The notes beneath the pieces were generated by a model. The model had not been told where the DNA came from. It worked only from the letters and a program-made list of their open reading frames with translations, and searched no databases. Below, piece after piece: positions 5,243 through 37,697 of a stretch of DNA of 52,544 bases. A program made the translations under genes and the position numbers. The first letter of the stretch is position 1, and every line of letters starts with the position of its first letter. The DNA is from an uncultured Bacteroidales bacterium (GTDB taxonomy: Bacteria > Bacteroidota > Bacteroidia > Bacteroidales > F082): the NCBI GenBank assembly GCA_946185535.1, contig CAMHJX010000023.1, positions 1-52,544 of the forward strand, written 5' to 3'.

Positions 5243-6085
5243 TTATTGTCCCCAGCACCTTTTAAGTTGTTCTCTTTGGCAGCAATAAGCCGAGTTTTCT
5301 GCCATTCTGATAATGGTTTCCTTAAAATACTGTGGTATGCGACTCGAAGCTTCAATGATAATATCATCAGGTATTCCATAAAAAGCTTCTGCGATACCAC
5401 ATGCAATGCAAGCTTGTGTGTCGCTGTCACCTCCAAGAGATACCGCCAACCTTACTGTGTTTTCATAGTCCTTGCTGTCGAGGAAGGCAATGATGGACTC
5501 CGGCACCGATTTCTGACACGACACCTCAAAACCATAAAAAGGCCTGATTTGGTCGCAAGTCCTATTGAGGTTATACTTGAACTTCTTTGAGATATAGTCT
5601 TTTATTTCCTCCTTGCTGGCCCCATGTCGCGCCATAAAGATGGCCGCCGCCGTAGCTTGCGCTCCTTTGATACCCTCTGGATGGTTGTGAGTGATGCTGG
5701 CCGAGATTTCCGCCACGCGTTCCGTCTCTTCTAACGAATCAAACATCCAACCAACCGCGCTAACACGCATCGCTGAACCGTTGCCGAAGCTGTTGTAAGG
5801 CTTCCGCTTGCCATCAGAGAAGATGGCATCAGGAAAAAACAGCCAGCGAAGAAAAGTGCCGCCATATCCGACATTGGAATTCAAATTGCCGTATTTCACC
5901 ATTTTTTCTTCAAGGACCTCGTGTATGTGCATAGGATCCTCAAGCAGCCATTCCGCCACGGCCATAGTCATCACGGAATCGTCCGTGTAACGACTACGTG
6001 GATTGAACAGCTCAAATCCCGTTGTTTTGATGCTGTTGAACTCATAACATGAGCCAACAATGTCTCCAATAATTGCTCCTAACAT
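5243..6085 (-). CDS. ADP-ribosylglycohydrolase family protein
   Basis: A 280-aa DraG/ARH-type hydrolase that would remove ADP-ribose from modified targets using a binuclear magnesium centre. Metal-ligand motifs are in place: GDIVGS at residues 7-12, TDDS at 34-37, GNGSAMR at 101-107 and GGDSDTQA at 218-225. Length and motif order are normal. No ADP-ribosyltransferase is visible nearby, so the substrate is unknown. The gene sits 32 nt after the WG-repeat gene in a same-strand run with the LRR/esterase gene. A -7-like TATATTTG (6106-6113, minus strand) lies just upstream and could give it extra transcription. Confidence 0.92.
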   Translation of the reverse strand: MLGAIIGDIVGSCYEFNSIKTTGFELFNPRSRYTDDSVMTMAVAEWLLEDPMHIHEVLEEKMVKYGNLNSNVGYGGTFLRWLFFPDAIFSDGKRKPYNSFGNGSAMRVSAVGWMFDSLEETERVAEISASITHNHPEGIKGAQATAAAIFMARHGASKEEIKDYISKKFKYNLNRTCDQIRPFYGFEVSCQKSVPESIIAFLDSKDYENTVRLAVSLGGDSDTQACIACGIAEAFYGIPDDIIIEASSRIPQYFKETIIRMAENSAYCCQREQLKRCWGQ

Positions 6086-8559: not shown

Positions 8560-8589
8560 AAATAGTTCCTTCATTTGGATTTTTCAACC
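8560..8589 (-). promoter_or_regulatory. Island promoter/operator motif, copy 1
   Basis: Minus strand: GGTTGAAAAATCCAA (8589-8575), 9 nt, CTATTT (8565-8560). Read as a sigma-70-like promoter it is TTGAAA - 17 nt - TATTTA, about 45 nt before the ATG of the esterase/LRR gene. The same 15-mer with the same spacing occurs at 10532-10561, 19370-19399 and 20564-20593. Confidence 0.65.
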
Positions 8590-8608
8590 GGCAAAGCGAA
8601 AAAGTTTT

Positions 8609-10315
8609 TTATGCCCTGAATCCTATCGCTCTGCGGGAGGATTCCTTGTCGAGCTTTTCTTCTTCACAAAGTTCAACAAGTCGGGTGATGCCAATCTCCT
8701 TGCTGAACAGCAGCTTCTCCACAAACACCTTCCTCGCCACATTCTCAATCTGTCCACCGCTGAAGTCATAGTTTTGGGCGAGTGATGCGGCGTCGGTTTC
8801 CTCCAAGTCATTGAGTTGCGATTTCCAGATGAATGTCTTTGCTTCAACGGAAGGTTGCTCGAATCTGACTTTGTAGATGAACCTGCGCTCGAAAGCCTTG
8901 TCGAAGTTGTCAGCCAGGTTGGTGGTGGCAATCATGATGCCGTCGAGGTTCTCCATTTCCTGAAGCAGGATGTTTTGGATGGCATTCTCAGTCTTGTCCG
9001 TGCTGTGCGAGTTGCTTAGATCGGACCTCACCGAAAGGATAGCGTCCGCCTCATTGAACAACAGGATGGGTGTGCGCTTGCTTTGCTTCACCAGCTTTCC
9101 GTATTGGACGAAGATGTCCTTGACAATCTTCTCCGTTTCGCCAAACCATTTGTCGCGCACGGTGGAGATGTCAACCTGCATGATGTCTCTGCCCGTCTTT
9201 CTGGCAAGCTGAAGCACGGTTTCCGTCTTGCCCGTACCGGGTGCGCCATGAAACAGACAGTTGAAGCCTTGCCGCATACCGTTTTCCTTCAGGTTGTTGC
9301 GCACCTCAAGCCACTTCGCTTCCGAAAGCAACTCGCTGATAACCTCCAATTCCTTCTGGTTTTGCTCGGAGTAGAACAGATGCTTTTCCTTGATGTCCTT
9401 AGCCTTGACGACTTTGAACCGGCTGCAATCGACTTCTTCCTGCTGCTCCTCCACGATGTCATAGTCCTTCAGCAGCTTCTTCTTGGCGTAGGTTGTCAAG
9501 GTGAACATGTCACGCATGAGTTGTTCGCCGCCACTGGGTTGAACCAGCTTTTTCTTGATGAGCACATGCTTCCCCTTGGCAAAAGCCCAGCCGTGCGTTG
9601 AAAAGTCTTCAACCAATTCCGACAAAGTGTCAAGGCAAACATTAGGCTGCGATTCGTAAACAAGTCGTTTGCAAAAATACAGCAGGAAAACGATGCTTTC
9701 ATAATCCAATTCAAGGTTTTCAATGGCTTTCACGATGGGCAGCTTGCGGTTGCCGTCGATGAGAATCTGTAATTCTTGGTTGAACTCTTCGGGAAGAAGG
9801 TGCCTCTTGCCTATAAACTCTTCATACAATTCGTTAACCGCCTTCATGAAATCATTCGGGCTGAGATTTGCCATTGACACCTCACGCAAGCCATGCCCTT
9901 CTGTCAAGGCATTTCCGGCTTTTTTGGTAAGAGACAAACCGATAGTCCCATATTGGTTTCTGTGGAAAAGATACCTACGATGAACCAGTTGAGTCAAATC
10001 CTCGCTGTAACGCATAATCGTTGTGGGTGAGCACTCAAAGAAGCACCTGAGGTCGCGGTGCTTCACCGTCTCTTCGGCATTGGCAATGAATGGCATTAGC
10101 AACACTGCCTGTTCCATACTCAATTGGAGATTGACGGCGATGGAAAGAATCAAATCACGGTATTTGGCAAACAGGTTGTCGTCTAGTTTGCTGCCTCTTG
10201 CCGCCTCGATGAGCATATCGATGCGGTCCAGCAACGGGGCGTAAATGTCGACTGGGAATTGGTTTTCGATTGGGGCGTCCATGCTGTGGTTTCTGTAATG
10301 GTTAGATTTTGCCAT
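8609..10315 (-). CDS. AAA+ ATPase with long N-terminal helical region
   Basis: A 568-aa ATPase. Residues 1-340 are an unassigned helical/winged-helix-like region (CSPTTIMRYSEDLTQLVHRRYL near 95 resembles a helix-turn-helix). Residues 345-560 are a single AAA module: Walker A HGAPGTGKT at 356-364, Walker B ILLFNEADA at 417-425, sensor-1 MIATTNL, and arginine-finger-like FERRF. The usual Asp of Walker B (hhhhDE) is Asn here, with the catalytic Glu kept. No protease or nuclease domain is attached. It looks like a remodelling or regulatory ATPase acting on partners encoded nearby. It follows the sigma-factor gene on the same strand across a 260-nt gap that contains a promoter motif and a long hairpin element. 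Confidence 0.87.
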   Translation of the reverse strand: MAKSNHYRNHSMDAPIENQFPVDIYAPLLDRIDMLIEAARGSKLDDNLFAKYRDLILSIAVNLQLSMEQAVLLMPFIANAEETVKHRDLRCFFECSPTTIMRYSEDLTQLVHRRYLFHRNQYGTIGLSLTKKAGNALTEGHGLREVSMANLSPNDFMKAVNELYEEFIGKRHLLPEEFNQELQILIDGNRKLPIVKAIENLELDYESIVFLLYFCKRLVYESQPNVCLDTLSELVEDFSTHGWAFAKGKHVLIKKKLVQPSGGEQLMRDMFTLTTYAKKKLLKDYDIVEEQQEEVDCSRFKVVKAKDIKEKHLFYSEQNQKELEVISELLSEAKWLEVRNNLKENGMRQGFNCLFHGAPGTGKTETVLQLARKTGRDIMQVDISTVRDKWFGETEKIVKDIFVQYGKLVKQSKRTPILLFNEADAILSVRSDLSNSHSTDKTENAIQNILLQEMENLDGIMIATTNLADNFDKAFERRFIYKVRFEQPSVEAKTFIWKSQLNDLEETDAASLAQNYDFSGGQIENVARKVFVEKLLFSKEIGITRLVELCEEEKLDKESSRRAIGFRA

Positions 10316-10357
10316 AGTGATATTGTTTTTGAAGGGTTGTCGGAATGGTTTTTTAAA

Positions 10358-10495
10358 GACGCGAGACTGCGGGACTTTTTTGACTATGACCGATGACGAT
10401 GACTATGACCACTTTCACGGGAAAGCTGAAATTTCAGCCCTTGGTTGAAGTGGTCATTGTCATAGTCACAAGTTATGGTCCCTCAGGCTCGTGTC
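10358..10495. repeat. Long inverted-repeat element, copy A
   Basis: A 138-nt palindromic element with arms of about 55 nt. The outer ends are GACGCGAGACTGCGGGAC (left) and the complement of GTCCCTCAGGCTCGTGTC (right). The inner arms are 33 nt (10382-10414 and 10448-10480), built of GACTATG/GACGATG words. A related element with the same ends but a different loop is at 17268-17457. It lies between the sigma-factor gene and the AAA gene. Confidence 0.8.
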
Positions 10496-10531
10496 AAAAG
10501 ATTTCACAATTCATGGTAAGCAACTACTTAC

Positions 10532-10561
10532 TATTAGAATCTTCAATTGGATTTTTCAACC
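10532..10561 (-). promoter_or_regulatory. Island promoter/operator motif, copy 2
   Basis: Minus strand: GGTTGAAAAATCCAA (10561-10547), 9 nt, CTAATA (10537-10532), equivalent to TTGAAA - 17 nt - TAATAG. It lies immediately downstream of the sigma-factor stop and about 220 nt upstream of the AAA ATPase start. The long hairpin element would be part of the 5' leader. Confidence 0.62.
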
Positions 10562-10575
10562 AGCATTTCATTTTA

Positions 10576-11157
10576 TTAAGCGCAGAGGCTATATTCGGGG
10601 CGGCTCAGCCAGGCATGCATTTTTTTCATTCCTCTGTTGCAAGCTTTTCTGGCACCTTCAATAGAGCACCCTAATTCTTCACCAATACATTCTAGTGAAC
10701 GCTCATAGAGTCCGTCGAAGCCAAAGAGTAAACTCACGGCTTTACACTCCTTGTCGGGCAACTGTTTGACAAGTTTTCTTACCGCCGCACGGGTATTCGC
10801 CAACTCATATCTTTCGTAGGGCGTCGGGGGTTCGCAATCGCAAATGTCTCTTTGCGGGTAGTCGTCGTCACCGTCAATCGGGATGATGGGACAGATGTCG
10901 AACTCCTCTTCCAACGAGACTGACAACACCTGATGGATATTCCTTGCAGCTTTTGACATGGCGTGACTAAGGACGATTTTGGCATAGCCCAAGAAAGTCA
11001 CACCCAGTTGGGGATTGTAGGATTCGACGGCATTAATCAGTGCCAGACACCCCTCTTGGAACAAGTCGTCACGCAAGTCTTTGCGGTAGCCGGCTCTTTC
11101 ATTTGCAAGTTCGCTCACGAGTTTCAGGTTTTCAGCGGTGAAGATGTTTTTTGCCAT
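10576..11157 (-). CDS. RNA polymerase sigma factor, sigma-70 family
   Basis: A 193-aa sigma factor. Region 2 is clear (DLFQEGCLALINAVESYNPQLGVTFLGYA, about residues 31-59), with the core-binding and -10 recognition helices. Region 4 (VKQLPDKECKAVSLLFGFDG ... SLECIGEELGCSIEGARKACNRGMKKM) carries the -35-binding helix-turn-helix. An acidic linker (IDGDDDYPQRDICDCEPP) replaces region 3, so it is a short group 3/4 type rather than the housekeeping factor. No anti-sigma gene is adjacent. Being inside an accessory island with several copies of a shared promoter-like motif, it is a good candidate for the regulator of those units, but this is inference. Confidence 0.9.
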   Translation of the reverse strand: MAKNIFTAENLKLVSELANERAGYRKDLRDDLFQEGCLALINAVESYNPQLGVTFLGYAKIVLSHAMSKAARNIHQVLSVSLEEEFDICPIIPIDGDDDYPQRDICDCEPPTPYERYELANTRAAVRKLVKQLPDKECKAVSLLFGFDGLYERSLECIGEELGCSIEGARKACNRGMKKMHAWLSRPEYSLCA

Positions 11158-11610
11158 AATAATTAATTTTTATTGGTGATAATTTAGAGATTTTCGATTT
11201 TGATGGCCCCGCTATACGGAAAAAGATTAGACTTTGCAACGTGTTAATGTAATTTTCACTTTTGTACAATCCATTCGAGAAGCGAGACAAGCCATGCTCC
11301 CTTAATTATTTAAGGTATTACCAATTCCATTTTTAGGCGTTTTCAACTTTGATGCCACTAATATGAGTAGTCTCGATGGTCTCGAAACGTTTATGCGTTG
11401 ATCAATTAAATGTTTTGTAATTCCATTGACTCTATAGACATAATTACACTACCAATCATGTTTATTACAACCTGTTTTGTTACATCGTTCGACCGGAAGA
11501 AGCAAAAAAAGAAATTAAAAAACAACTTTTTTTGTCAATTTATAGAATTTTTCAGTTCAATTTTTCTCTTTTTACGAAAAACATATTGAAAATCAGATAG
11601 ATAATAAAAC
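11158..11610. other. AT-rich non-coding gap upstream of the sigma-factor gene
   Basis: About 450 nt with no supportable gene on either strand. It must contain the sigma-factor promoter. I see no strict TAnnTTTG box; the nearest candidate on the minus strand is TTGCAA - 17 nt - TATAGC around 11207-11235. A partial match to the island motif (GTTGAAAACGCCTAA, minus strand, near 11330-11345) lacks a -10 box. Confidence 0.5.
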
Positions 11611-11651
11611 AAAAAAAAGACTATTACTCAAAATGATGATAGTCCTTTTTT
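11611..11651 (-). terminator. Terminator downstream of the 255-aa gene
   Basis: A hairpin, GACTAT paired with ATAGTC, flanked by an A run on the left (11611-11618) and a T run on the right. It can serve either strand. On the minus strand it follows the stop of the 11687-12454 gene by 36 nt and would end that transcript. Confidence 0.7.
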
Positions 11652-11686
11652 CCAACTAAAGAAAGCCTTTTTCAAAAAACGGTGTG

Positions 11687-12454
11687 CTACATTCTACCTT
11701 CCAAAAAGTCTATCAGTTCTTGTCCAGTAATAGTTCTAACCTCTGGTTCGGCATTATTACATGCAATTTTCCACACAGCATTGATTGTCAACAGCCAAGG
11801 ACATGCCTCGCATATCATTGTAACTTTATCAGCATTCCAAATTACGGGTTTCCCCTTCGTTTTCGGTTGTTCGAACCAATTTGAATCAACTTGCATTTCC
11901 ACATCCGTTTCTTGCTTTTTTTCTTGTCTGATTGCAATGACCGTATTGCTGTTATTACGACACACCCATATTACATCATCTTTCGTGTCGATCTTATTCT
12001 CTTTCAGTAGAGTCCCGTCATCGTGCTTGAAATACCACTGTTTCTTCAGTTTTTGTCTTTCTGAAATCACGACGCACAAAGTATCATCTGTTTTTTCGTA
12101 TGAAACGACACATCGTTTCTTGAACTTAAGTGATGATTCAGAAAGGTCACCTTTCAATAGTGAGTTGAATGCCTTTTCCCATGCCTTTGTGGTAATGATG
12201 CTATCCTTACCTGCACGCCAATCTTTAATCTGTATCGGTCTATTGCTGTCTTCAAACCATACTTTTCCTGTATTACCATCTCCTATTTCAACACGAACCG
12301 CTTTCCTCCACGAATTTGTATGTTGTCTTTTCTCCTCATTAGTGTATTGTTTAACATACACTTCATCGCCAACAACAACGGCATTTTTATCGTGTCGGAT
12401 TTCCTGATAGTCAGATAATAGGAAATCCTTTTCTTCCTTTTTGTTATTTGTCAT
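11687..12454 (-). CDS. Hypothetical protein, paralogue of the N-terminal region of the adjacent LRR protein
   Basis: A 255-aa soluble protein of no recognised family. It aligns along its length with residues 1-245 of the next gene upstream: HDKNAVVVGDEVYV versus HEKNAFVAGDKVYI, KVWFEDSNR versus KLYFEDGKR, IITTKAWEKAF versus IITTDAWEKAF, CVVISERQ versus CVIISNKK, and CPWL near the C-terminus. This copy ends with ITGQELIDFLEGRM and has no LRRs. The gene is 39 nt downstream of its paralogue, on the same strand, and closed by the 11611-11651 terminator. AT-rich relative to the core genes. Confidence 0.75.
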   Translation of the reverse strand: MTNNKKEEKDFLLSDYQEIRHDKNAVVVGDEVYVKQYTNEEKRQHTNSWRKAVRVEIGDGNTGKVWFEDSNRPIQIKDWRAGKDSIITTKAWEKAFNSLLKGDLSESSLKFKKRCVVSYEKTDDTLCVVISERQKLKKQWYFKHDDGTLLKENKIDTKDDVIWVCRNNSNTVIAIRQEKKQETDVEMQVDSNWFEQPKTKGKPVIWNADKVTMICEACPWLLTINAVWKIACNNAEPEVRTITGQELIDFLEGRM

Positions 12455-12493
12455 CGTAATACTAAATCTTTGTTTGACGACAACACTGGTTAC

Positions 12494-14122
12494 TCATTCT
12501 TCAATTAGGATGATGTTTCCGCCATCAAGTCCCATTGCTTTGAAACGGTCTTTTTCGCCTTTCGGAACAAAAACTCTTCGAGTTATGTATCCATCTATAG
12601 GATCGTTCTCAAAAATGGAGGGACCTATTTCCATAATACTTGATGGTAAATGAATTTCTAGTAGTGCGGAACAAAAGCCAAAAGCCTCTTCACCTATTTC
12701 TTTCACTCCTTCTGGAATAACGATTGACTTCAGTGACGAACAACCTCTAAAAGCGGATCTCCCAATCTTTTTAACAGTCTTTGGAATTATTGTATTTTTA
12801 CAACCAGCAATAAGAATATTGTTTTTGGTCTCAATAATAGCATTACAATTCTCTCGAGAGTCAAAACTATTATTCTTATCAGAAACGATTATTCTTTCAA
12901 GAGAAGAACCAAAATCCGAACAATTTATTATATCAACACTTTCTGGAATACTTATTTCTTTTAAGGAGCAGCCCTCAAATGCACCCTCGTCAATAACTTG
13001 TACGCCGTTTGGTATTTTGCTTGAAGAACAAGCATGGCTAAGATGAATAACTGGTAATTCTTCAATCTCTTCTCCATCATCTTCTATGTAATAACCCCCA
13101 CTTACAGTTTCGATAATTGCATTACAATTTTCTCTTGAATCATAAACTTTATTCTTTGGAGATATAACGATTATTCTAAGCAAAGGACATTCAGAAAAAA
13201 TATTATAAGAGAAACTTCCATTCCCATTACTATCAGCTATTGTTGTAACTGTTGAGGGCAAGTAGACCTCCTGAAGGTTTGGGCATTCTAGGAAAGCTTC
13301 TTCAAATATCGTTGTAACTCCTTCGGGTACTTCGAATTTTTCAACATTGGGACAACGCTCAAGTGTTTTCCCATCAGCAGAAAAACAAGCGTCAAAAAGC
13401 CCTTTGGTTGCATCCACCTTAAACGGGTTGTAATCCTTCAAGTTGCCGATTTCAGTAGCCCAAGGAGCCTTCATATCCTTAAGCCATGGACAAAGATATC
13501 CGATAACATAGATTGATTTGAAATTCCATGCATAAAACTTCCCTTTTGTATCAGTAATGATACAATCTTCAGGCAATTCCACATATAATCTCGGATTAGC
13601 ATTTACGGTGGTCTTTACCGCTTTTGGTTCGCCAACCTTACCTTTATAGATGCTTTTTCTCTCAAGGGAAGTGTCTTCTTTCTTCAGAAGCGACCACCAG
13701 TCACGTCTAACAAACCACCTCTTTTGAACATTTTCTTTTTTATTACTAATAATAACACAAGGAATTCCATCAATTGTTTCGCACGAAACAACACTGTTCA
13801 TTCTATTTTCTCTAGCCTCTTTCTTAGTCCAAACTTCATCTAGCAATGCAAAAGCTTTTTCCCACGCGTCAGTTGTAATGATATTATCATGCTTATTTTC
13901 TTTTGGGTCGCAAACCGTTACCCCTCTCTTACCGTCTTCAAAGTATAGTTTACCTTCAACGACGTCAACAGATTTGACTGTTCGCCATACTCTTATGGGC
14001 TTACCCTTGATGTTCTTCCAGATATACACTTTGTCTCCTGCAACAAAGGCATTTTTTTCGTGGTTAATTTGCTGGTAATGTTCTTGTTCATTACTGCTTT
14101 GGTTGTCATTTTTTGTGCTCAT
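12494..14122 (-). CDS. Unknown N-terminal region plus BspA-type leucine-rich repeats
   Basis: A 542-aa protein without a signal peptide. Residues 1-245 are the unrecognised region shared with the 255-aa neighbour. From about residue 255 it has LRR_5 (BspA-like) repeats, such as VEKFEVPEGVTTIFEEAF, LKEISIPESVDII and LKSIVIPEGVKEIGEEAF. It ends in a family-like cap (FVPKGEKDRFKAMGLDGG). Two internal segments contain a near-identical DSRENCNAIIET phrase, typical of BspA repeat units. It probably acts in the cytoplasm as a binding protein; the target is unknown. It has its own Bacteroidetes-type promoter at 14184-14216. Confidence 0.82.
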   Translation of the reverse strand: MSTKNDNQSSNEQEHYQQINHEKNAFVAGDKVYIWKNIKGKPIRVWRTVKSVDVVEGKLYFEDGKRGVTVCDPKENKHDNIITTDAWEKAFALLDEVWTKKEARENRMNSVVSCETIDGIPCVIISNKKENVQKRWFVRRDWWSLLKKEDTSLERKSIYKGKVGEPKAVKTTVNANPRLYVELPEDCIITDTKGKFYAWNFKSIYVIGYLCPWLKDMKAPWATEIGNLKDYNPFKVDATKGLFDACFSADGKTLERCPNVEKFEVPEGVTTIFEEAFLECPNLQEVYLPSTVTTIADSNGNGSFSYNIFSECPLLRIIVISPKNKVYDSRENCNAIIETVSGGYYIEDDGEEIEELPVIHLSHACSSSKIPNGVQVIDEGAFEGCSLKEISIPESVDIINCSDFGSSLERIIVSDKNNSFDSRENCNAIIETKNNILIAGCKNTIIPKTVKKIGRSAFRGCSSLKSIVIPEGVKEIGEEAFGFCSALLEIHLPSSIMEIGPSIFENDPIDGYITRRVFVPKGEKDRFKAMGLDGGNIILIEE

Positions 14123-14183
14123 AAGTGCTGTTTTTTATTATACCTTTTCCTAATAAACAGTGTCTGTTTGGAATATGACGGTG

Positions 14184-14216
14184 CAAATATAACGAAAAAG
14201 TGGTTTGACTATCAAA
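14184..14216 (-). promoter_or_regulatory. Bacteroidetes-type promoter for the 542-aa LRR gene
   Basis: Minus strand: -7 TATATTTG (14191-14184) and -33 TTTG (14216-14213), 21 nt apart, about 65 nt before the ATG. Confidence 0.6.
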
Positions 14217-14304
14217 GTTCTAACAATTGTATGAGAAATGTAGAGTCCTATACATTTCCCCTTGTAGCTTTACACCCAAGGCATCGGGATAGTGATGCAA
14301 AGAA

Positions 14305-14420
14305 TCATCTATTAATCGTTTTGTAAACGATTTTATCACGAGCCTTCGTGAATCCCACTCTTCGGATGATTTCTACGGAACTGAAGTCATTCACGTCAAA
14401 CCAAAAATAATCGAAGAGGC
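14305..14420 (-). pseudogene. Duplicated 3' end of the 148-aa gene, left by insertion of the R-M unit
   Basis: Minus-strand translation gives FDYFWFDVNDFSSVEIIRR, then VGFTKARDKIVYKTINR and a stop. This is the C-terminus of the gene at 16764-17210 with only a few changes. No start codon or N-terminal part is present. It directly abuts the restriction-enzyme stop codon. Confidence 0.85.
14314..14419. repeat. Direct repeat flanking the R-M unit, copy 1 (106 bp)
   Basis: Matches 16770-16875 with 9 substitutions by eye over about 103 aligned bases (about 91% identity) and no gap. The right end stops within 2 nt of the endonuclease stop codon. Confidence 0.9.
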
Positions 14421-15503
14421 TCATTTCACCACAAATACCACATCAGCCAAACTGCTGTAATCTCTATCCTTAAAAGTGAAGTCAATTTTACTCAAGGATG
14501 CTTTTGTGAAGCCGTCGAGATAGTTTGTGACTGCGGGTTCAATCTGTTCGAAGGCGCGTTTCATTTTCCAGGATTGCGTCATGTCAGACGAATCCACCAA
14601 AATCAGGAATAGCCGATTCTCCGCTCCAAAACGCATTTCGCCTTGGTTTTCATACAACCACTTCATAAGATCTTCCTTGTTCCTTTCAGCATCGTCAATG
14701 ACCGCTTTGCGTTTGCTTCTCAGTTCCGATAAAACGTCGTCATGGCCTGCTGCACCAAGTTTTTCCATGGCAACTGCGACTGAATCCACACCGTGCATGT
14801 TCATTTCCCGTTCTTTTGCCTTCAGTTTCAGCCATGCCAACTCGCTTTTGCTGCCAAGTTCAGCTTTTAACTTTTCATTCATGTATTGGTTGGGGAAGTA
14901 GGTCACTTTCAGGTCGATAGGAGTGTCATCAAGAAAGAAATCCACACTTTTAATCTCGCCAACTGCTGAAATGACTTTTGGATGGTGCTTGAAAATGGAT
15001 TCAATTAAGAACGAAGTCCAATTGTTGTACCAGCTGGTACGGACATAATTCCAAGCATTTGCCTGTATCTCCATTTGTTTGCCTTGCAGTTCATCGTATT
15101 TGCTGATGACTTTTACAAATCTGCTTATCAAGTGTTTGTCAAGAGAATTGTTCTGATCACCACCCCATTCGTAGGTATTAATTTTATATAGGTCTTCTTT
15201 CAGTTGCTCCTCGTTCACTCCCATTTGGCGATACCATTCGTTGTTGACGTCGCACAAATAAGCATCCAACAATTCCAAAGAGCGTTTTGGGTTCCTTTCC
15301 AAAATGGTAAACAACTCTATGTTCTGGTCTTTGATGCTGGTCGATTCAAGCTGAATGTCGTTCTTCTCCAGGAACTTTGTCATGGGTGCTTTCTTTGAGA
15401 TTGCCTTGACTTTCAGCCATAACAATGCTTCATCGGTGTTGAAATCAAGAAACTTCTGGTTTTGGTACAGCTTTTTCCATTTGTCGTAACGAGCGTTGTT
15501 CAT
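14421..15503 (-). CDS. Probable type II restriction endonuclease (partner of the D12 methyltransferase)
   Basis: A 360-aa protein. I place the start at ATG 15503-15501 (MNNARYDKW), which overlaps the methyltransferase stop as ATGA; the frame extends 9 codons further upstream into that gene. A PD-(D/E)xK-like core is visible as VDFFLDDTPIDLKVT, with Asp188 and Asp197-x-Lys199 in suitable spacing. The family is not one I can name. The role is inferred from tight coupling to a DNA adenine methyltransferase and from this nuclease-like core. The recognition site cannot be read from sequence. The pair is bracketed by a 106-bp direct repeat. Confidence 0.7.
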   Translation of the reverse strand: MNNARYDKWKKLYQNQKFLDFNTDEALLWLKVKAISKKAPMTKFLEKNDIQLESTSIKDQNIELFTILERNPKRSLELLDAYLCDVNNEWYRQMGVNEEQLKEDLYKINTYEWGGDQNNSLDKHLISRFVKVISKYDELQGKQMEIQANAWNYVRTSWYNNWTSFLIESIFKHHPKVISAVGEIKSVDFFLDDTPIDLKVTYFPNQYMNEKLKAELGSKSELAWLKLKAKEREMNMHGVDSVAVAMEKLGAAGHDDVLSELRSKRKAVIDDAERNKEDLMKWLYENQGEMRFGAENRLFLILVDSSDMTQSWKMKRAFEQIEPAVTNYLDGFTKASLSKIDFTFKDRDYSSLADVVFVVK

Positions 15504-16582
15504 CTTGTATTTGTTTTTTGTTTGGTGCAAATCAACAGAATCTCACTACTGCCGGCCACACTGCCTTTTCCCCCTCTTGATTGCTGATAGGTTTTGTACT
15601 CAACCCTGACATCTCTGAAGGGTTTGATAAGCTCTACCATAGTGTCGATAGTCGGATAGCTGCGGTTGTTGTAGCTGATAATCCAATTGGGGATAGAGTC
15701 TGACAGTTCGAACAATCTACGGAACGAGAGAATAATCTCGGTCTTCTTGTCGAACCCGCTATGGCGTTGTGGTTCATAACGTTTGATTCCGTTCACAAAC
15801 TGTTTATCCTTCCAATACTCTGTATAGGTCTCCAATAGGTGATAGAATCCTTGATAGTCGGCGTGGCTATCGCAATAAGGAGGATCGAAATACACCAAGT
15901 CGATTCCACTCAACGTAGGTAGCAAATCAAGGATGTCATTACGAAAGCTGATGTTCTCCTTTCCATTGTCGAAGACCGCCGCATTGTACTTTGGCAGCAG
16001 TTCCATAAATAACTCTTTAACAGGACGTGTCAAACTTCTGTTCCGTTTCACCCTTTCGGGGTCGTTGGCATAAACCAAGGCTTGCGTATGTCCGAAATGC
16101 CCCATGGTGATTTTGCGGGTCAGACTCCGATTCATCACGGCAAAGGCCAAAGCTTGCTTATAGGGATTGCCCAGTCGTGGAATATTGGCCCTAAAATTGT
16201 CAATAAATACGGCATCCTCTTTTTGGAAAAAGACCCCAGTAAAGATGTCGTCCATCAGTGTAAAGTCCGCCTTATTGGAAGCGTCAGCAAACAAGGTCTC
16301 AAGATCGTTTTCATCCAACTTTTCCCCCTTGTTCTCTATGAGCGCCTTGCCAATCTGGTTGTTGAAACTCAAAAAGTCGTTGGTTATGGTCCTGTATCCC
16401 AGTTGCTTGAAATAATAGCCAACAGATTGTGAACCCGCAAAAGCATCCAAAGCCGTTTCGACGTTTTCAGGTAGAAACCGTGTTATCCATGGTAAGAGAT
16501 TCGCTTTAGCCCCAAGATACTGAGGCTCGGGAAACTTGTAAGCGAAGTTCTTGTACTCGTCGAATAGGGCACCTTCAAACAT
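15500..16582 (-). CDS. D12-class N6-adenine DNA methyltransferase
   Basis: A 360-aa SAM-dependent DNA methyltransferase of the MT-A70-independent D12 (Dam-like) class. The substrate-entry segment PQYLGAK is at residues 20-26, SAM-binding motif I DAFAGSQSVGYYF at 46-58, and catalytic motif IV DPPY at 233-236. The large insert between motifs I and IV is longer than in E. coli Dam, so the target is not necessarily GATC. It protects host DNA from the adjacent endonuclease, with which it overlaps by an ATGA. A -7 box (TATATTTG, 16604-16597, minus strand) lies about 15 nt before its ATG, suggesting its own promoter, as expected for a mobile R-M unit. Confidence 0.9.
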   Translation of the reverse strand: MFEGALFDEYKNFAYKFPEPQYLGAKANLLPWITRFLPENVETALDAFAGSQSVGYYFKQLGYRTITNDFLSFNNQIGKALIENKGEKLDENDLETLFADASNKADFTLMDDIFTGVFFQKEDAVFIDNFRANIPRLGNPYKQALAFAVMNRSLTRKITMGHFGHTQALVYANDPERVKRNRSLTRPVKELFMELLPKYNAAVFDNGKENISFRNDILDLLPTLSGIDLVYFDPPYCDSHADYQGFYHLLETYTEYWKDKQFVNGIKRYEPQRHSGFDKKTEIILSFRRLFELSDSIPNWIISYNNRSYPTIDTMVELIKPFRDVRVEYKTYQQSRGGKGSVAGSSEILLICTKQKTNTR

Positions 16583-16596
16583 TGGATAATTTTTTG

Positions 16597-16604
16597 CAAA
16601 TATA
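16597..16604 (-). promoter_or_regulatory. -7 promoter element upstream of the methyltransferase gene
   Basis: Minus strand TATATTTG followed by GC matches the Bacteroidetes -7 consensus. No good -33 TTTG is seen at 19-21 nt, and the 5' leader would be very short. Confidence 0.4.
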
Positions 16605-16763
16605 CATAATTATTGAGAAATCTATACTTGATAGTTAATGTTTTTCATGCATAAGGCAATAGACAAGCGCATGCGTGATATCAATGCTTGCGGCTTGTAG
16701 GCTTTTTGCTTTTTGAGTTGATGAACAAGTGCTTTAAAAAGTAATACTGACTCAAAAGAAAGA

Positions 16764-17210
16764 CTATCTAAGCGTTTTATAAACAATCTTGTCACAAGCC
16801 TTCGTGAATCCCACTCTTCGGATGATTTCGACGGAACTGAAATCATTCACGTCAAACCAAAAAAAATCGAAGAGGTGTTCGCCCTTTTCGTCGCAGCCAT
16901 TCGTGATGCGCGTCATGACATCATTAAGCATAGGCAGCAGCCTGTCCGTGTAGCCGTTTTCGCTGGTTGGGAGCAAATCGGGATGGGCATAGAACATCAA
17001 CACCCGGCCTCCTTTTTCCTTGCGTTCCAATTGGGGAATGTGAATGTTGGGGTTTTCTTTTGTAAGAGCGATATACATTACCATGCGGTTGCCTTCTTTG
17101 TTCCAACACTGAATGGAAAGCGATTCTTTCGCCATGGAATAAAAACTACCGTTTACCAACTCCTTTGGAGTTTGATCTTCGAATGATGCGATGCTGTTTT
17201 CTGGTTTCAT
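16764..17210 (-). CDS. Hypothetical protein, 148 aa (target gene of the R-M insertion)
   Basis: Not confidently recognised. A soluble protein with a beta-rich centre (RMVMYIALTKENPNIHIPQL, RVLMFYAHPDLLP) and an aromatic C-terminal segment (FDFFWFDVNDFSSVEIIRRVGF). The last segment resembles the end of acetyltransferase-like folds, but an acetyl-CoA-binding motif is not evident. The 3'-terminal 106 bp are repeated on the far side of the restriction-modification pair, showing that this gene was the insertion target and that its reading frame was preserved. It lies downstream of rmuC. Confidence 0.6.
   Translation of the reverse strand: MKPENSIASFEDQTPKELVNGSFYSMAKESLSIQCWNKEGNRMVMYIALTKENPNIHIPQLERKEKGGRVLMFYAHPDLLPTSENGYTDRLLPMLNDVMTRITNGCDEKGEHLFDFFWFDVNDFSSVEIIRRVGFTKACDKIVYKTLR
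16770..16875. repeat. Direct repeat flanking the R-M unit, copy 2 (106 bp)
   Basis: The 3' end of the intact 148-aa gene; partner of 14314-14419. Together they bracket 14420-16769, which contains only the methyltransferase and the endonuclease. Confidence 0.9.
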
Positions 17211-17267
17211 TGTCGTTAATTATTAAGTAACTATTCAGAATTAAACTGCTATATCTTTTGACTTCTG

Positions 17268-17457
17268 GACGCGGGACTTCGGGACTTTTTGACTATGGCC
17301 AATGACGATGACTATGACTGCTTTGGGTAGGCTGTTAGCTTTTTAGCCGTTAACTATTAGCTTTGTAGCTCGTTAGCTAAAGGCTAATTGCTAATAACTA
17401 ACAGCCATGCCAGGTCATTGTCATAGTCACAAGTCATAGTCCCTTAGTCTCGCCGTC
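17268..17457. repeat. Long inverted-repeat element, copy B
   Basis: A 190-nt palindrome related to 10358-10495. It has the same outer ends (GACGCGGGACTTCGGGAC left; complement of CCCTTAGTCTCGCCGTC right) and the same GACTATG/GATGACTATGAC inner arms (17291-17318 and 17414-17441). The loop is replaced by a second inverted repeat of TAGCT-type heptamers running from GGCTGTTAG (17330) to CTAACAGCC (17406). It lies directly downstream of rmuC and could form a very long hairpin in its transcript. Confidence 0.8.
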
Positions 17458-17466
17458 AGCATGGAT

Positions 17467-18876
17467 TCAGTTTTCAATCAATTCCACACCTTCCACCTCG
17501 TCGATATCAAGCATGGTTGGAAGAGGGTTCTTGCTGTTTTTGGCGCCAAGCTTGATCAGCTTGTTGGCCGACATTACGATGCTTTGGCCGTGGTCCTCAA
17601 GCTTCGCCTTGCCACCTTCGTATGCTTTTTGCGCCTTGTTAAGTGCGTCACCAATATCCTCATACTTTTTCACAAACTGTCCTACGCGTTCAACCATTTC
17701 GTTAGCCAATTTATAGACTTCCTCATGGTTCTGCGCCTGTTTGATTTGCGTCCAAGTCATGTTGATGATTTTCAATGCGGCATATAGCGACTGCTCGTCG
17801 GCGATGAAGACGTTCTGCTCCATAGCTTTGCGCCATAAATCAGGTTGTTCGTTGAGTGCAGTCCATAAGGCACCGGTGTGAGGCACAAACATGATGACAT
17901 AGTCCATTCTAACCTTTGGTGCCTGGATATATGACGAATAGTCCTTCTTGGCAAGCTCCTTCACATGTTTCTGCAAACTATCAATGTGGGCTTTCAGATA
18001 CTGCTGGCGTTCCGACTCGTTTTCTGCATTGACAAAGTCGAAGAATGCGGTCAGTGAGACCTTGGAGTCGATGATTACCTCTCGCTTCTGGTCGAGGTGA
18101 AGGATGACGTCGGGACGCATGATGTTTCCGTCCTCGCTCTTGATGGTGTCGCCCTTTGCATTGCGAATGGTGGCCTGTGTGTCAAACTGGACACCTTCGG
18201 TAAGCCCTTGCGAGGTGAGCAATTCGGTAAGCACTGTCTCGCCCCAGTCGCCTTGCACTTTACTCTGATGCTTAAAGGCTTTGGTCAATTCCTCCGTCGT
18301 GGATTGAGTTGCCTTGCTTTGCTCCAGCATTTGCTTCAGGTTCTCCTGCATTGCACTGTTGATGGACACCGCTTCCTTTGAGGATTTCTGCATGGCTTCT
18401 TCCATTTTGGCGATGGTCTCCTTCAAAGGGTTGACAATCTGTCCAATGTTGGTGCTGCTGCTTTCGGCAAATTCTTTCTGCCGTGCTTTCAGCAAGTCCT
18501 CTGTGGCGGCTTTGTTCTCTGTGACGATGCGCGACATGGTGGAGTCGAAACGCTCTTGCTGGTCTTTCACGGCTTCTTCATAATGCGCTTTGAGGGTTTT
18601 CAAGGCCTCTTCGTTGGCCTTGTCTTTAGCTTCCAAAGCCGACTCGTAGTGACGTTGTTCGTCGGCTTTCATGTCAGCCAATCGCTGCTCAAAATTGTCC
18701 TTGGCTTCTTGCAGGTCAGTCTGCGATTGAAGTTTGGTTTCTTCCAACAGATGGTTGGCACTTTCGAGGTTGGCTTTCACGCTGCTGTTCTTGCTGTTGA
18801 AGATAAGGCCGGTAATGACAGCGCCTAAAACAATGCCCACAAGGGCTACGATGATGGTGGTAAGATTGATAATCAT
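17467..18876 (-). CDS. rmuC: DNA recombination protein RmuC
   Basis: A 469-aa RmuC homologue. It has an N-terminal membrane anchor (about residues 5-27), a long coiled coil (about 35-190, Glu/Lys/Ala rich with SSTNIGQIVNPLKETI at its end), and the conserved RmuC nuclease-like domain with QGDWGETVL, FDTQATIRN, MRPDVILHL, IIDSKVSLTAFFDF and YVIMFVPHTGALWTAL. RmuC proteins limit recombination at inverted repeats and are linked to the PD-(D/E)xK nuclease fold. Length is normal for Bacteroidetes. Two long inverted repeats lie close by, a suggestive but unproven association. Confidence 0.94.
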   Translation of the reverse strand: MIINLTTIIVALVGIVLGAVITGLIFNSKNSSVKANLESANHLLEETKLQSQTDLQEAKDNFEQRLADMKADEQRHYESALEAKDKANEEALKTLKAHYEEAVKDQQERFDSTMSRIVTENKAATEDLLKARQKEFAESSSTNIGQIVNPLKETIAKMEEAMQKSSKEAVSINSAMQENLKQMLEQSKATQSTTEELTKAFKHQSKVQGDWGETVLTELLTSQGLTEGVQFDTQATIRNAKGDTIKSEDGNIMRPDVILHLDQKREVIIDSKVSLTAFFDFVNAENESERQQYLKAHIDSLQKHVKELAKKDYSSYIQAPKVRMDYVIMFVPHTGALWTALNEQPDLWRKAMEQNVFIADEQSLYAALKIINMTWTQIKQAQNHEEVYKLANEMVERVGQFVKKYEDIGDALNKAQKAYEGGKAKLEDHGQSIVMSANKLIKLGAKNSKNPLPTMLDIDEVEGVELIEN

Positions 18877-18926
18877 GCGTATTGTTGGTTTTGACTAGAT
18901 TAACGAATGGTATTTTATATTATTAC

Positions 18927-19301
18927 TTACGCCACTCTGGCAATCAAGCTTTTGGCATAGTTGAAGACAACCTGTCGGGCGCGGGCTTTCTGCTCTTTCG
19001 AGCTGATGGGCAGATGGTAATAAAGCACCGTCTTGCCACCACATACGAGAGCCAAAACTTCGCCTTGGGCACTCTCTTTGAGGCGAATGGGCAGGGTGCC
19101 TGGCTGAATGGCTTGCACCTTCCTGTCAAGCGCCTCTTTGCTCAGGGGACGTACAGAAAGCAACTTGTGACGATACTGGATGTTGTCGACAGTCACTTGC
19201 TCATACATTACGCCATTTTCAATTACGAATTGGCGTGCCTCTTTGCTGTTTTGCTTGACGACAGCCTTGAAGTCGGTTTTGTTCAAATCTTTAATCTCCA
19301 T
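18927..19301 (-). CDS. Hypothetical protein, 124 aa
   Basis: Not recognised. A basic, soluble alpha/beta protein with no cysteine-rich or membrane region; the C-terminus is Lys/Arg/Ala rich (SSKEQKARARQVVFNYAKSLIARVA). The frame is open back to 19397, but I choose ATG 19301-19299 (MEIKDLNKTDF). The longer version would begin inside the promoter motif at 19370-19399, and its first 32 residues look non-coding. It lies 50 nt upstream of rmuC on the same strand and may be co-transcribed with it. Confidence 0.65.
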   Translation of the reverse strand: MEIKDLNKTDFKAVVKQNSKEARQFVIENGVMYEQVTVDNIQYRHKLLSVRPLSKEALDRKVQAIQPGTLPIRLKESAQGEVLALVCGGKTVLYYHLPISSKEQKARARQVVFNYAKSLIARVA

Positions 19302-19327
19302 AGTTAAGTTGTTTATATTGTTTTTCC

Positions 19328-19343
19328 CCGGGGTTAAACCCGC
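19328..19343 (-). promoter_or_regulatory. Short leader hairpin upstream of the 124-aa gene
   Basis: A GGGTTTAACCC-type palindrome with adjacent CCGG sits between the putative promoter at 19370-19399 and the ATG at 19301. It would lie in the 5' untranslated region. Confidence 0.35.
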
Positions 19344-19369
19344 ATACTGGCACCCTGCCGTACAATGAT

Positions 19370-19399
19370 ATATAGTCCCAGTTTTTGGATTATTCAACC
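19370..19399 (-). promoter_or_regulatory. Island promoter/operator motif, copy 3
   Basis: Minus strand: GGTTGAATAATCCAA (19399-19385), 9 nt, CTATAT (19375-19370), equivalent to TTGAAT - 17 nt - TATATA. It lies about 70 nt upstream of the 124-aa gene, just after the stop of the 361-aa gene. Confidence 0.65.
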
Positions 19400-19434
19400 A
19401 AAACGCTTTTTATTTGGCGTTTTTTTTAGGAAAC

Positions 19435-20520
19435 TCAGCTTCGGGTTTTCACAGAACCTGCTGAACGAGGATCCTTGAAAAACGCTTCCACGTCACTTAT
19501 GGTGTAACCCAAGTCGGGAAACAACGGCTCAAGCGCGGATCTGCGGTATTCTCGCAGCAAATAAATGTTGTTTTCTTTTTCCTTTTTCAGTGGCGTGAGT
19601 CGCTTCTGATACTGTTTGTTGTCAATCTCACCCGACTTCAGCTGTCTATACAGTTCTTTGCATTCTTCGTCGATTTCCTTTTCTCTCTTTTCCTTCTTCT
19701 CCTTCTTCTCTTCATAGATGGCCATGATGGCTTTCAGATTGTCACGATACGCATATAACAACCTGAATTTGAGATGTTCAATCATGTCTTCCAAATTCCG
19801 TATCTTAGCCGGCATATCCTTTGTCTTCCAGTAAAGCTCGCTCCTCAAATATATATTCTCCAGCTCCATGTCGTCAATCAAGGAAAGGCTTTCTTTTTCC
19901 AAAATATCAACGACCTGTTTCAACGAGTAAGCTTGATACAGGCTCTTTGCCTCATCATAGCGACTGTTAATCCTCATGAAGTTGGGCCACAACGACGAGA
20001 ACGGATAGATGGATTCCGTTTCGGTTTTGCCGTTTTCGTCGACAACGCCACAGCTATTTCTGCCTGATAAGGGGCTGCCAGCGATTTGGTAAACCAGTTT
20101 TTTCATTCCGTTTCCATCGCAAATCAAGGCGGTTTCGCAATTCAGCCACCATTCCAGATAAACGCCCAAGGTAGGACAGTGGAATCCACTGGTCCCCGTG
20201 TAGGCAATGCCGTTTTGGATAGGCACCGGGCAAAGGAACATGCGGCTATCCGACATAATCCTGTTCCTGTATTGAAGGAACCTGAAAGCATTATCAAAGA
20301 AGAGCAATCTCTCTTCTGATTTTTCCTCCTCAGTAACAGGTGTTGGGGCTAACATTCTCTTACCAATGGCAAAATAAGTGCCGGTAGCGTCCAGCTTCAC
20401 TTCGTTGTCCACCTGCTCACCAGTTTGTTCCAAGGGATAGCAATCAAGAACATTGCCGTTCAACAGTTGGATTTTCCCTTCAGGATGCTCGAAGTCGTCG
20501 TGTGTTTTAATGATTCCCAT
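19435..20520 (-). CDS. Hypothetical coiled-coil protein, 361 aa
   Basis: Not recognised. The N-terminal 180 residues look globular (DATGTYFAIGKRML; FHCPTLGVYLEWWLNC; ALICDGNGMKKLVYQIAGSPLSGRN). Residues about 210-320 are strongly helical with a Lys/Glu coiled coil (EEKKEKKEKREKEIDEECKE). The end (LFPDLGYTISDVEAFFKD) is probably a small helical cap. No signal peptide or membrane helix. It is preceded by the island promoter motif at 20564-20593, about 45 nt from the ATG. Confidence 0.65.
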   Translation of the reverse strand: MGIIKTHDDFEHPEGKIQLLNGNVLDCYPLEQTGEQVDNEVKLDATGTYFAIGKRMLAPTPVTEEEKSEERLLFFDNAFRFLQYRNRIMSDSRMFLCPVPIQNGIAYTGTSGFHCPTLGVYLEWWLNCETALICDGNGMKKLVYQIAGSPLSGRNSCGVVDENGKTETESIYPFSSLWPNFMRINSRYDEAKSLYQAYSLKQVVDILEKESLSLIDDMELENIYLRSELYWKTKDMPAKIRNLEDMIEHLKFRLLYAYRDNLKAIMAIYEEKKEKKEKREKEIDEECKELYRQLKSGEIDNKQYQKRLTPLKKEKENNIYLLREYRRSALEPLFPDLGYTISDVEAFFKDPRSAGSVKTRS

Positions 20521-20563
20521 GATGATTGATTTTATTAATGGAAGTTTGTTCTTGTCTATAGTG

Positions 20564-20593
20564 TTATAGCATTGCTGATTGGATTATTCAACC
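20564..20593 (-). promoter_or_regulatory. Island promoter/operator motif, copy 4
   Basis: Minus strand: GGTTGAATAATCCAA (20593-20579), 9 nt, CTATAA (20569-20564), equivalent to TTGAAT - 17 nt - TATAAC. It is about 45 nt upstream of the 361-aa gene. Confidence 0.65.
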
Positions 20594-20651
20594 AGCAAGG
20601 AAGATTTTCTTGAGGAAATGTACAGAGTTTTAGGTTTAACGGGCTTCAAGT

Positions 20652-20784
20652 GAGATTCCCCTTCGGGTAATGAAGTTGATACACGGTTTATTAAGCGGTG
20701 GCATGAACATGTTGATTCCTCGTAAGATCCACAAACCGCCGAGGGAAACACCAAGGACTATTTCCATTCCCGTAAGGGAATCTC
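20652..20784. repeat. Inverted repeat in the gap between the 176-aa and 361-aa genes
   Basis: The left arm GAGATTCCCCTTCGGGTAAT (20652-20671) pairs with the right arm ATTCCCGTAAGGGAATCTC (20766-20784), with about 3 mismatches. The 90-nt interior contains further short complementary runs (AAGCGGTGG, ACAAACCGCC). No coding potential is seen. It could be a small mobile (MITE-like) remnant or a structured RNA. Confidence 0.6.
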
Positions 20785-20822
20785 GCCAAGTCTTTTAACT
20801 AACCGATTACATCACTTCAACG

Positions 20823-21353
20823 TCATTTTATCTTGCCTCTCTCAAACCAACGGCTGTTGTCGAAATAGATGCTTATAGAATAGCCGCCTTCCTCTTCAAG
20901 TTCAAGGCAATCAATATGTCCTGGAAGCAAGCGCTGGCTCACCACCTTCATGGTCGGATAGTATCTTCTGAGAAACTCGTATTCATGCCCCACGCAGATG
21001 ACACAAAACGGATTGTCGAGCGTGCCATTCCCCGTACTCTCTATTGCCTCGCAAATCAGTGGTCCTTGACCAAGGTATTCGGCAAGGGAAAGGCCAGTAT
21101 ATCTTTCAATAATATTGGGGTTATGCGTTTTTTGTTTTTTGCCTTCTTCTTGGCGCCAATACTTCGCGCTGAGGACGTCTGGAATAATGCCCTTCGCATA
21201 ATCCTCAGTAAAGATGTAGCCATACACCAAGCCGCGCATGGTTTCTGTGTCGAAATCACGCAGTTGGCCTTCCACAAATTTTTTCAGCCAATAGCTGTTG
21301 AAAGCGTGTTCGTAGTCTTGGTAGTTGACTTTCTTGGGGTAGTCTGTGCTCAT
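20823..21353 (-). CDS. Hypothetical protein, 176 aa
   Basis: Not recognised. A soluble, acidic alpha/beta protein; segments that may be structural are VYGYIFTEDYAKGIIPD, PLICEAIESTGNG, FCVICVGHEYEFLRRYYP and a beta-rich end (YSISIYFDNSRWFERG). No motif identifies an activity. It is the most upstream gene of the minus-strand island and is preceded by a divergent copy of the shared promoter motif at 21405-21434. Confidence 0.62.
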   Translation of the reverse strand: MSTDYPKKVNYQDYEHAFNSYWLKKFVEGQLRDFDTETMRGLVYGYIFTEDYAKGIIPDVLSAKYWRQEEGKKQKTHNPNIIERYTGLSLAEYLGQGPLICEAIESTGNGTLDNPFCVICVGHEYEFLRRYYPTMKVVSQRLLPGHIDCLELEEEGGYSISIYFDNSRWFERGKIK

Positions 21354-21404
21354 ATCAGATACAATTTGAACCTTTCAAATCTTTTATGTGAAGCTTTCAA
21401 TGAG

Positions 21405-21434
21405 ATATTAGCTCCTTTTTGTGATATTTTCAAC
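21405..21434 (-). promoter_or_regulatory. Island promoter/operator motif, copy 5 (divergent)
   Basis: Minus strand: GTTGAAAATATCACAA (from 21434), then CTAATAT, giving TTGAAA - 17 nt - TAATAT. The -35-like and -10-like parts and the spacing match copies 1-4, but the ATCCAA part is imperfect. It is about 55 nt upstream of the 176-aa gene. Confidence 0.45.
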
Positions 21435-30633: not shown

Positions 30634-30666
30634 ATTTCTGTTTGTTTTATCCTAGCATTATTCAAC

Positions 30667-34512
<3,846 letters not shown>

Positions 34513-34568
34513 GGTATTATTGTTTTTTAGGTGATGTATTGAGAAAGACGAACAAACTAAAAGAGGAA

Positions 34569-34625
34569 TTTCGCATAAAGCGAAAAATCGGCACAAACCT
34601 CAGCCCCTATTTCGGGACTGAGGTT
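34569..34625 (-). promoter_or_regulatory. Two hairpins in the rplL-rpoB leader
   Basis: Minus strand: AACCTCAGTCCC/GGGGCTGAGGTT (34625-34596) with a 6-nt loop, then TTTCGC/GCGAAA (34585-34569), 55 nt before the rpoB start. In many bacteria the rplL-rpoB gap holds an attenuator or RNA-processing site that lowers rpoBC expression relative to ribosomal protein L7/L12; these hairpins fit that place. Confidence 0.6.
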
Positions 34626-34653
34626 GAATGCCGTTATTAACGGGAATGAATCC

Positions 34654-35031: not shown

Positions 35032-35096
35032 TTTTAATTCTATTTTAAATTGTTAATACTTGCTTTTAATGGTTTGAATGATACACATTCGATATA

Positions 35097-35618: not shown

Positions 35619-35638
35619 TTCAACAAATTCCTTTCAAT

Positions 35639-36334: not shown

Positions 36335-36375
36335 TTAACTAACTTTTTTGTTGTTCTACAAATGCACGAAAGATC

Positions 36376-36822: not shown

Positions 36823-36878
36823 TTCTTTAATCCTTAATTAAGTGTAATTAGGCAACAATTTAATTCGCAAAAACCAAC

Positions 36879-37427: not shown

Positions 37428-37484
37428 CTTCCAATCAAATTAAAAAGTTTGCCGATAAATGCTCATCAAGATTCAATCCATCTA

Positions 37485-37673: not shown

Positions 37674-37697
37674 CTTCTATTGAACCTTAATAAAAAG

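What the first reader, a model, noticed from the sequence alone, without database searches (positions are those of the whole stretch)
8560..21434. A shared promoter-like motif upstream of four or five island transcription units, with a sigma factor encoded in the same island
GGTTGAAWAATCCAA followed by exactly 9 nt and CTA(A/T)(A/T)(A/T) is found on the minus strand at 8560-8589, 10532-10561, 19370-19399 and 20564-20593, with a weaker copy at 21405-21434. All lie upstream of island genes (esterase/LRR, AAA ATPase, 124-aa, 361-aa, 176-aa), four of them about 45-70 nt from the start codon. They can be read as TTGAA(A/T) - 17 nt - TA(A/T)(A/T)(A/T)-type promoters, unlike the TAnnTTTG boxes of the other genes. 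The sigma-70-family factor at 10576-11157 is the obvious candidate reader. Alternatively TTGAA-N3-TCCAA is a near-dyad for a dimeric regulator. Either way it ties otherwise unrelated unknown genes into one putative regulon.
Basis: partly seen in the sequence, partly recalled or inferred. Interest (0 to 1): 0.82.

Follow-up and report, generated by a model that had tools for sequence, protein, structure and literature searches.

The report
Island sigma factor with promoter array
Several unrelated genes on one DNA island of a Bacteroidales bacterium carry the same two-part sequence just upstream; it is likely a promoter read by a small sigma factor encoded on that island, which would let these genes be switched on together.

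Summary
All four sites match exactly (0.01 expected); the weak fifth is an exact copy in three related genomes. In 24 related loci the boxes occur 43 times at exactly this spacing and 0-1 times at each of 14 other spacings; 15 of the 43 could not have been found by the patterns that chose the loci. Sites precede a recurring gene set: AAA ATPase, a gene before an SbcCD-like pair, rmuC, PARG-type hydrolase, unknowns. All 15 of 99 genus genomes with the short sigma carry the motif, against 21 of 84 without, mostly coding hits.

The sigma as reader is plausible, not shown. An htrA operon has the same boxes in 12 of 19 loci from genomes lacking the short sigma, and the short sigma lacks residues RpoD-type sigmas use for such boxes (roles recalled). 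I give the island sigma 0.5 and the htrA-linked core sigma 0.25. The dyad and recombination-site readings are not supported. New variant of a known kind: an island-borne sigma with its own promoter array, here beside an AAA ATPase and repair/defence-type genes.

The parts
8560..8589 (-). Promoter-like site of the esterase/LRR gene, GGTTGAAAAATC-N12-CTATTT, 49 nt before ATG
   Evidence: also before the same gene in G058
10532..10561 (-). Promoter-like site between sigma and AAA genes, 218 nt before the AAA ATG
   Evidence: a site with 0-1 mismatches lies between sigma and AAA in 8 of 9 loci with this order
19370..19399 (-). Promoter-like site of the 124-aa gene (rmuC follows), 70 nt before ATG
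20564..20593 (-). Promoter-like site of the 361-aa gene, 45 nt before ATG
21405..21434 (-). Decayed promoter-like site of the 176-aa DUF4919 gene, 54 nt before ATG
   Evidence: exact in G014, G053, G058
11213..11240 (-). Possible degenerate site (2 mismatches) 55 nt before the sigma gene itself; suggestive only
   Evidence: 2 or fewer mismatches upstream of 5 of 16 short-sigma genes, 6 of 118 control genes
10576..11157 (-). Short sigma factor, 193 aa, candidate reader; ends in CA
   Evidence: Pfam, NCBIfam; 92-93% identical copies in G014, G053, G058
8609..10315 (-). AAA ATPase, 568 aa, partner gene of the short sigma
6968..8512 (-). Esterase-like (UPF0227) and LRR protein, 514 aa
18927..19301 (-). 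124-aa protein, no Pfam match for the ORF tested
19329..19363 (-). Two predicted hairpins at the start of the 124-aa leader
   Evidence: no shuffle control was run
17467..18876 (-). RmuC protein, 50 nt behind the 124-aa gene; has a site of its own in G058
19435..20520 (-). 361-aa protein, no Pfam match
20823..21353 (-). 176-aa DUF4919 protein

Best explanation
The motif is a two-box sequence, GGTTGAAAA-N15-CTATA, that recurs at fixed spacing upstream of the genes of a family of islands in one Bacteroidales genus, and it likely works as a promoter to which the island's own short sigma factor would guide RNA polymerase. Shown: the boxes, the spacing, the position before start codons, and co-occurrence with the sigma gene. 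Inferred: that it is a promoter (TTGAAA, 17 nt, TATA), that transcripts start roughly 7-12 nt after the C of CTATA, and that the short sigma reads it. On this model a signal raises the amount or lifetime of the sigma, which then switches on the AAA ATPase, 124-aa/rmuC, 361-aa, 176-aa and esterase units together, beside ordinary housekeeping promoters such as the TAnnTTTG-type boxes seen before sbcD. The nearly constant C-terminal CA of the short sigmas suggests control by proteolysis (inferred).
For: 49 of 70 candidate sites (up to 2 mismatches, at most 260 nt from a called start) lie 23-81 nt before that start. All 15 short-sigma genomes have the motif against 21 of 84 others, 13 of those 21 judged coding; with CTATA required, 15 of 15 against 13 of 158 in the family; 3 hits against 4 reversed-pattern controls in the 74 genomes of other genera. 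AAA gene beside 11 of 16 short-sigma genes held, with a site between them in 8 of 9 loci of the window order. rmuC, 50 nt behind the 124-aa gene in the window, has its own site in G058. In the distant genomes G026 and G065 the islands and short sigma occur while the htrA operon lacks the boxes.
Against: The htrA operon has the exact boxes in 22 of 30 loci, including 12 of 19 from genomes without the short sigma. G024 (99% complete, no short sigma) has the motif 35 nt before sbcD. AAA paralogues in the negative genomes G064 and G069 have it (82% and 79% complete). Short sigmas lack the RER..RQ and WW residues present in RpoD and the 288-aa sigma, and the window type and the 222-aa type differ in the recognition helix although the boxes are alike (roles of residues recalled). 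Motif and sigma share an island, so co-occurrence is confounded. No clear site precedes the sigma gene itself in 11 of 16 cases. No expression data.
Confidence: 0.5

Rival explanations
1. The promoters would be read by the 288-aa RpoD/RpoS-like sigma encoded behind htrA, which also drives its own operon; the island genes have plugged into this host regulon and the short sigma does something else.
For: Exact boxes before htrA in 22 of 30 loci, with or without the short sigma; htrA in 87 of 99 genomes, with the 288-aa sigma behind it in the 4 loci opened wide enough; this sigma keeps the RpoD residues; motif before sbcD in G024.
Against: In 20 more distant genus members only 2 htrA upstream regions come within one mismatch, and G026 and G065, which have motif islands, lack it. 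The htrA sites rarely have the C at position 11 (7 of 26; island sites 74%).
Confidence: 0.25
2. A DNA-binding activator or repressor would bind GGTTGAAAA and housekeeping polymerase do the rest; the N-terminal part of the AAA protein is one candidate.
For: The first conserved block is longer than a usual -35 hexamer; AAA paralogues without a neighbouring short sigma also have the motif.
Against: CTATA at exactly 15 nt is as conserved as the first block and is not the housekeeping TAnnTTTG box; the dyad half is not conserved.
Confidence: 0.15
3. The motif would be a recombination or gene-cassette junction rather than a promoter.
For: Two of the four strong sites lie about 15-20 nt after the stop codon of the preceding gene and a third about 36 nt after one.
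Against: Sites stay with the downstream gene and keep a promoter-like distance to its ATG; where the AAA gene is absent behind the sigma (G014, G053) no such site was found there; a core htrA gene has the same boxes.
Confidence: 0.02

Closest known systems
CASP-sigma of type III-E CRISPR loci (PMC10028731, passages read)
   Same: A small sigma factor encoded in a defence locus, with predicted binding sites inside that locus.
   Different: No Cas7-11, Csx29 or Csx30 was seen among the genes identified here; NCBIfam CAS_III-E_sigma scores 28.9 bits against a cut-off of 100 for the 194-aa relative.
MzaA, sigma-like protein of the MZA anti-phage system (NCBIfam entry)
   Same: Sigma-70 domain in a defence-associated protein.
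   Different: Window sigma 40.4 bits against a cut-off of 800, and a 193-aa protein against a 726-position model.
IetA/IteA anti-phage ATPase
   Same: The AAA half of the partner ATPase is most like IetA among the PADLOC models it matched.
   Different: 79.6 bits against the NCBIfam cut-off of 510; only residues about 299-540 match.
Housekeeping promoters of Bacteroidota, TAnnTTTG (PMC9723704 and PMC7366714, passages and one section)
   Same: A two-box promoter layout.
   Different: Different -10 box and fixed rather than variable spacing; PMC9723704 also reports sigma-54-like, TAnnTTGY and ECF-like CGT classes, none of them this one. The sequence of promoter motif 2 of PMC7366714 was not given in the text I saw.

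Membership tests
sigma-70 family (TIGR02937) | Curated family score | tested here: met
   65.5 bits, cut-off 42.9
sigma-70 family | Region 2 domain (PF04542) | tested here: met
   33.4 bits, cut-off 24
sigma-70 family | Region 4 domain (PF04545) | tested here: inconclusive
   20.6 bits, cut-off 24.1; profile of ten short sigmas aligns over both domains of solved SigA and FliA chains
sigma-70 family | Directs core RNA polymerase to promoters | not testable with these tools
   Needs transcription assays
ECF (group 4) sigma | Only regions 2 and 4 | tested here: met
   Matched stretches 9-72 and 131-180 of 193 aa
ECF (group 4) sigma | Promoters with a CGT-type -10 box | tested here: not met
   The motif has CTATA; CGT feature from PMC9723704
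ECF (group 4) sigma | Neighbouring anti-sigma gene | not tested
   No search for anti-sigma domains was made
Housekeeping Bacteroidota promoter | TAnnTTTG at -7 | tested here: not met
   Absent within 200 nt of the five motif genes
CASP-sigma | NCBIfam CAS_III-E_sigma cut-off | tested here: not met
   28.9 bits against 100 for L109 sigma; not among the 25 families shown (of 36) for the window sigma
MzaA | NCBIfam cut-off | tested here: not met
   40.4 against 800 bits
IetA/IteA | NCBIfam cut-off | tested here: not met
   79.6 against 510 bits

The most novel reading that the evidence does not exclude
A portable transcription system: each island brings its own compact sigma factor, a dedicated AAA ATPase and a promoter attached gene by gene, so that repair, ADP-ribose-processing and defence genes fire as one programme in any host of the genus, with the sigma held down by proteolysis through its C-terminal CA until a signal arrives.
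Probability: 0.25. Interest if true: 0.8.

Novelty: new variant of a known kind. Interest (0 to 1): 0.62.

Why it matters
The two Bacteroidota transcriptome papers I looked into report only a few non-housekeeping promoter classes, and genes on such islands are hard to assign one by one. A defined promoter sequence turns a set of unknown proteins into one testable regulon, predicts further members, and asks directly whether an island can carry its own transcription specificity.

Tried and rejected
Dyad for a dimeric regulator: rejected because the TCCAA half is not conserved across island sites. Recombination or cassette site: rejected because sites stay with the downstream gene. Chance or AT-rich artefact: rejected (the reversed pattern gave 13 hits against 70 and 6 against 49).

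Test in trans with an unlinked gene: the gene behind the C18 site occurs in only 2 of 99 genomes, both with the short sigma, so it decides nothing. sbcD upstream regions: the 30 best of 70 matches were fetched, 28 readable. Of 20 readable from negative genomes one (G024) has the exact motif; G078 has a similar pair of boxes one nucleotide closer together; of 8 from positive genomes 6 have it about 600 nt upstream, before the 167-aa gene. AAA paralogues: 3 of 20 upstream regions fetched have it within one mismatch. Viral contigs: no relative of the short sigma, one of the AAA protein, not studied. Plasmids: three records with AAA relatives over 95% of the query at 34-36% identity, no sigma gene annotated in the stretches with 4 kb flanks opened (the gene tables are incomplete). 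Phages: only partial AAA matches in the 10 rows shown. Rfam on window 1-26000: none. Literature: the listings showed no title or abstract start describing this motif; three papers were opened, by passages and one section. The ten hits sharing a ..ATyGACGA.. stretch in negative genomes, and G089, were taken as coding from their sequence, not opened.
Full report
Observation. In the own genome the 15-mer occurs exactly only in these four places; the single 1-mismatch hit elsewhere lies in a repetitive stretch that looks coding. In 99 genus genomes the exact 15-mer occurs in three: four times in the own genome, twice in G014 and three times in G058, each time on one contig and one strand.

Real consensus. 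Loci from related genomes were fetched and genes called by a simple longest-ORF script. Scanning for GTTGAAAA-Nk-CTATA in 24 loci (397 kb) gave 43 exact sites at k = 15 (37 unique) and 0-1 at each other k from 8 to 22. Many loci were chosen through similar patterns, so I counted the sites that none of the genome-search patterns could have found: 15 of 43 (13 unique), against 4 sites in all over the 14 other spacings. Collapsed to 35 dissimilar sites, the conserved positions are GGTTGAAAA, a C at position 11 (74%) and CTATA, with a weak TAGA-like stretch 11-14 nt after the C of CTATA (the sites were selected with one mismatch allowed to GTTGAAAA-N15-CTAT, so those columns are conserved partly by selection, position 11 and the preceding G are not). 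Read as a promoter this is TTGAAA, 17 nt, TATA. Of 70 candidate sites (up to 2 mismatches, within 260 nt of a called start), 49 lie 23-81 nt before it.

Genes served. Downstream of the sites lie the same gene families in different genomes: AAA ATPase, 124/137-aa protein, 167-aa protein before an SbcD/SbcC-like pair, 361-aa protein, WG-repeat-type protein, DUF4919 protein, PARG-type hydrolase, rmuC and others. Neighbours in related islands include a C5 DNA methylase, an AddA-like helicase and a type IIG restriction-like enzyme; the window has a weak Dam-like match below its cut-off. Of the 16 short-sigma genes held as loci, 11 have the AAA gene as neighbour. In nine the order is sigma then AAA, and in eight of these a site with 0-1 mismatches lies between, as in the window; L115 has none. 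In G084 a site follows the sigma although only a remnant of the AAA gene is left. rmuC, 50 nt behind the 124-aa gene in the window, stands alone in G058 with a site 67 nt before its start.

Footprints. For the 361-aa gene, identity upstream of the first box is 0.33-0.40, while consensus positions agree 14 of 14. For the 124-aa gene, window against G058, 13 of 14 consensus but 6 of 13 spacer positions agree. For the fifth site, 13 of 14 consensus positions agree although flanks agree only 0.17-0.20. The AAA pair is uninformative, as its flanks are also 0.77-0.90 alike (all).

Leader. The 124/137-aa gene has in 12 of 12 leaders folded two predicted hairpins close together; in 11 the first begins 11-12 nt after the start of CTAT, and in the twelfth (L131) it is irregular. 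No shuffle control was run. This fits a transcript starting there but does not prove it.

Sigma distribution. A profile of ten short sigmas finds the family in 15 of 99 genus genomes and in none of the 74 other family genomes searched. All 15 have at least one exact GTTGAAWAAHC-N12-CTAW, 48 hits in all; 21 of 84 others have 22 hits (p = 2.6e-8); the reversed pattern gave 13 hits in the 99. Of the 21 negative genomes, ten share one peptide-like stretch and three more are coding (G066, G069 opened; G089 same sequence as G066). The rest are the htrA operon (G024, G037, G070), sbcD (G024), an AAA paralogue (G064), and four unexplained (G001, G009, G021, G090), of which only G001 was opened. With CTATA required it is 15 of 15 against 13 of 158 family genomes (p = 2.5e-14). 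Only part of the 36 hits in positive genomes is clearly unlinked to a sigma island (for example C18 in the own genome and C7 in G075). These tests treat genomes as independent and do not separate island from sigma.

Against the sigma as sole reader. htrA is in 87 of 99 genomes; in the 4 loci opened wide enough a 288-aa sigma follows, scored as RpoS/RpoD-like below the cut-offs. In the 30 best-matching htrA loci the upstream region has the exact boxes in 22: 10 of 11 short-sigma-positive and 12 of 19 negative. In 20 more distant members 2 come within one mismatch. G024, 99% complete and without the short sigma, has the motif 35 nt before sbcD; the other 19 readable negatives do not. The short sigmas lack residues that RpoD-type sigmas use for TTGA and TATA (roles recalled). 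So the promoter class is wider than the short sigma, and either both sigmas read it or the core one does. I keep the short sigma ahead because in G026 and G065, distant members, motif-bearing loci come with it while their htrA operons lack the boxes.

What it resembles. Sigma factors carried by defence loci are known (CASP-sigma, PMC10028731, passages; MzaA as an NCBIfam entry). Non-housekeeping promoter classes are known in the phylum (PMC9723704, PMC7366714). The combination here, a compact sigma beside an AAA ATPase with a repeated promoter over repair/defence-type islands, was not seen in the listings, which cover an open-access library only. That these are defence islands is inferred from gene content. 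Three relatives carry metagenome names with RUG and are labelled Bacteroidales or Bacteroidia; that RUG stands for rumen genomes is recalled.

Noticed in passing
10576-10581 and relatives: 15 of 16 short sigmas end in CA and one in AA, across proteins only 21-27% identical to the window's; the RpoD-type ones do not. Possible degradation signal.
   Followed up: partly
19329-19363: Two hairpins with a GGCAGGG(C/T)GCC core at the start of the 124/137-aa leader in related genomes; no Rfam match in the window.
   Followed up: partly
L105 3010-3267, L109 10320-10575 and similar: The 222- and 194-aa sigma genes have leaders of about 150 nt with stretches shared between genomes, unlike the window type.
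   Followed up: no
L107 5683-8752: PARG-type, NADAR, kinase and ADP-ribosyltransferase-like genes stand together; the window has an ADP-ribosylglycohydrolase at 5243-6085.
   Followed up: no
L316, L317, L318: AAA relatives on Prevotella and Segatella plasmids without an annotated sigma gene nearby; HAD-domain and WYL genes near the two Segatella ones.
   Followed up: no
L128 7826-7852: Exact motif 35 nt before sbcD in a genome without the short sigma.
   Followed up: partly
26329-39010: The island lies beside the rpoC/rpoB, ribosomal protein and tuf-like region (read by eye).
   Followed up: no
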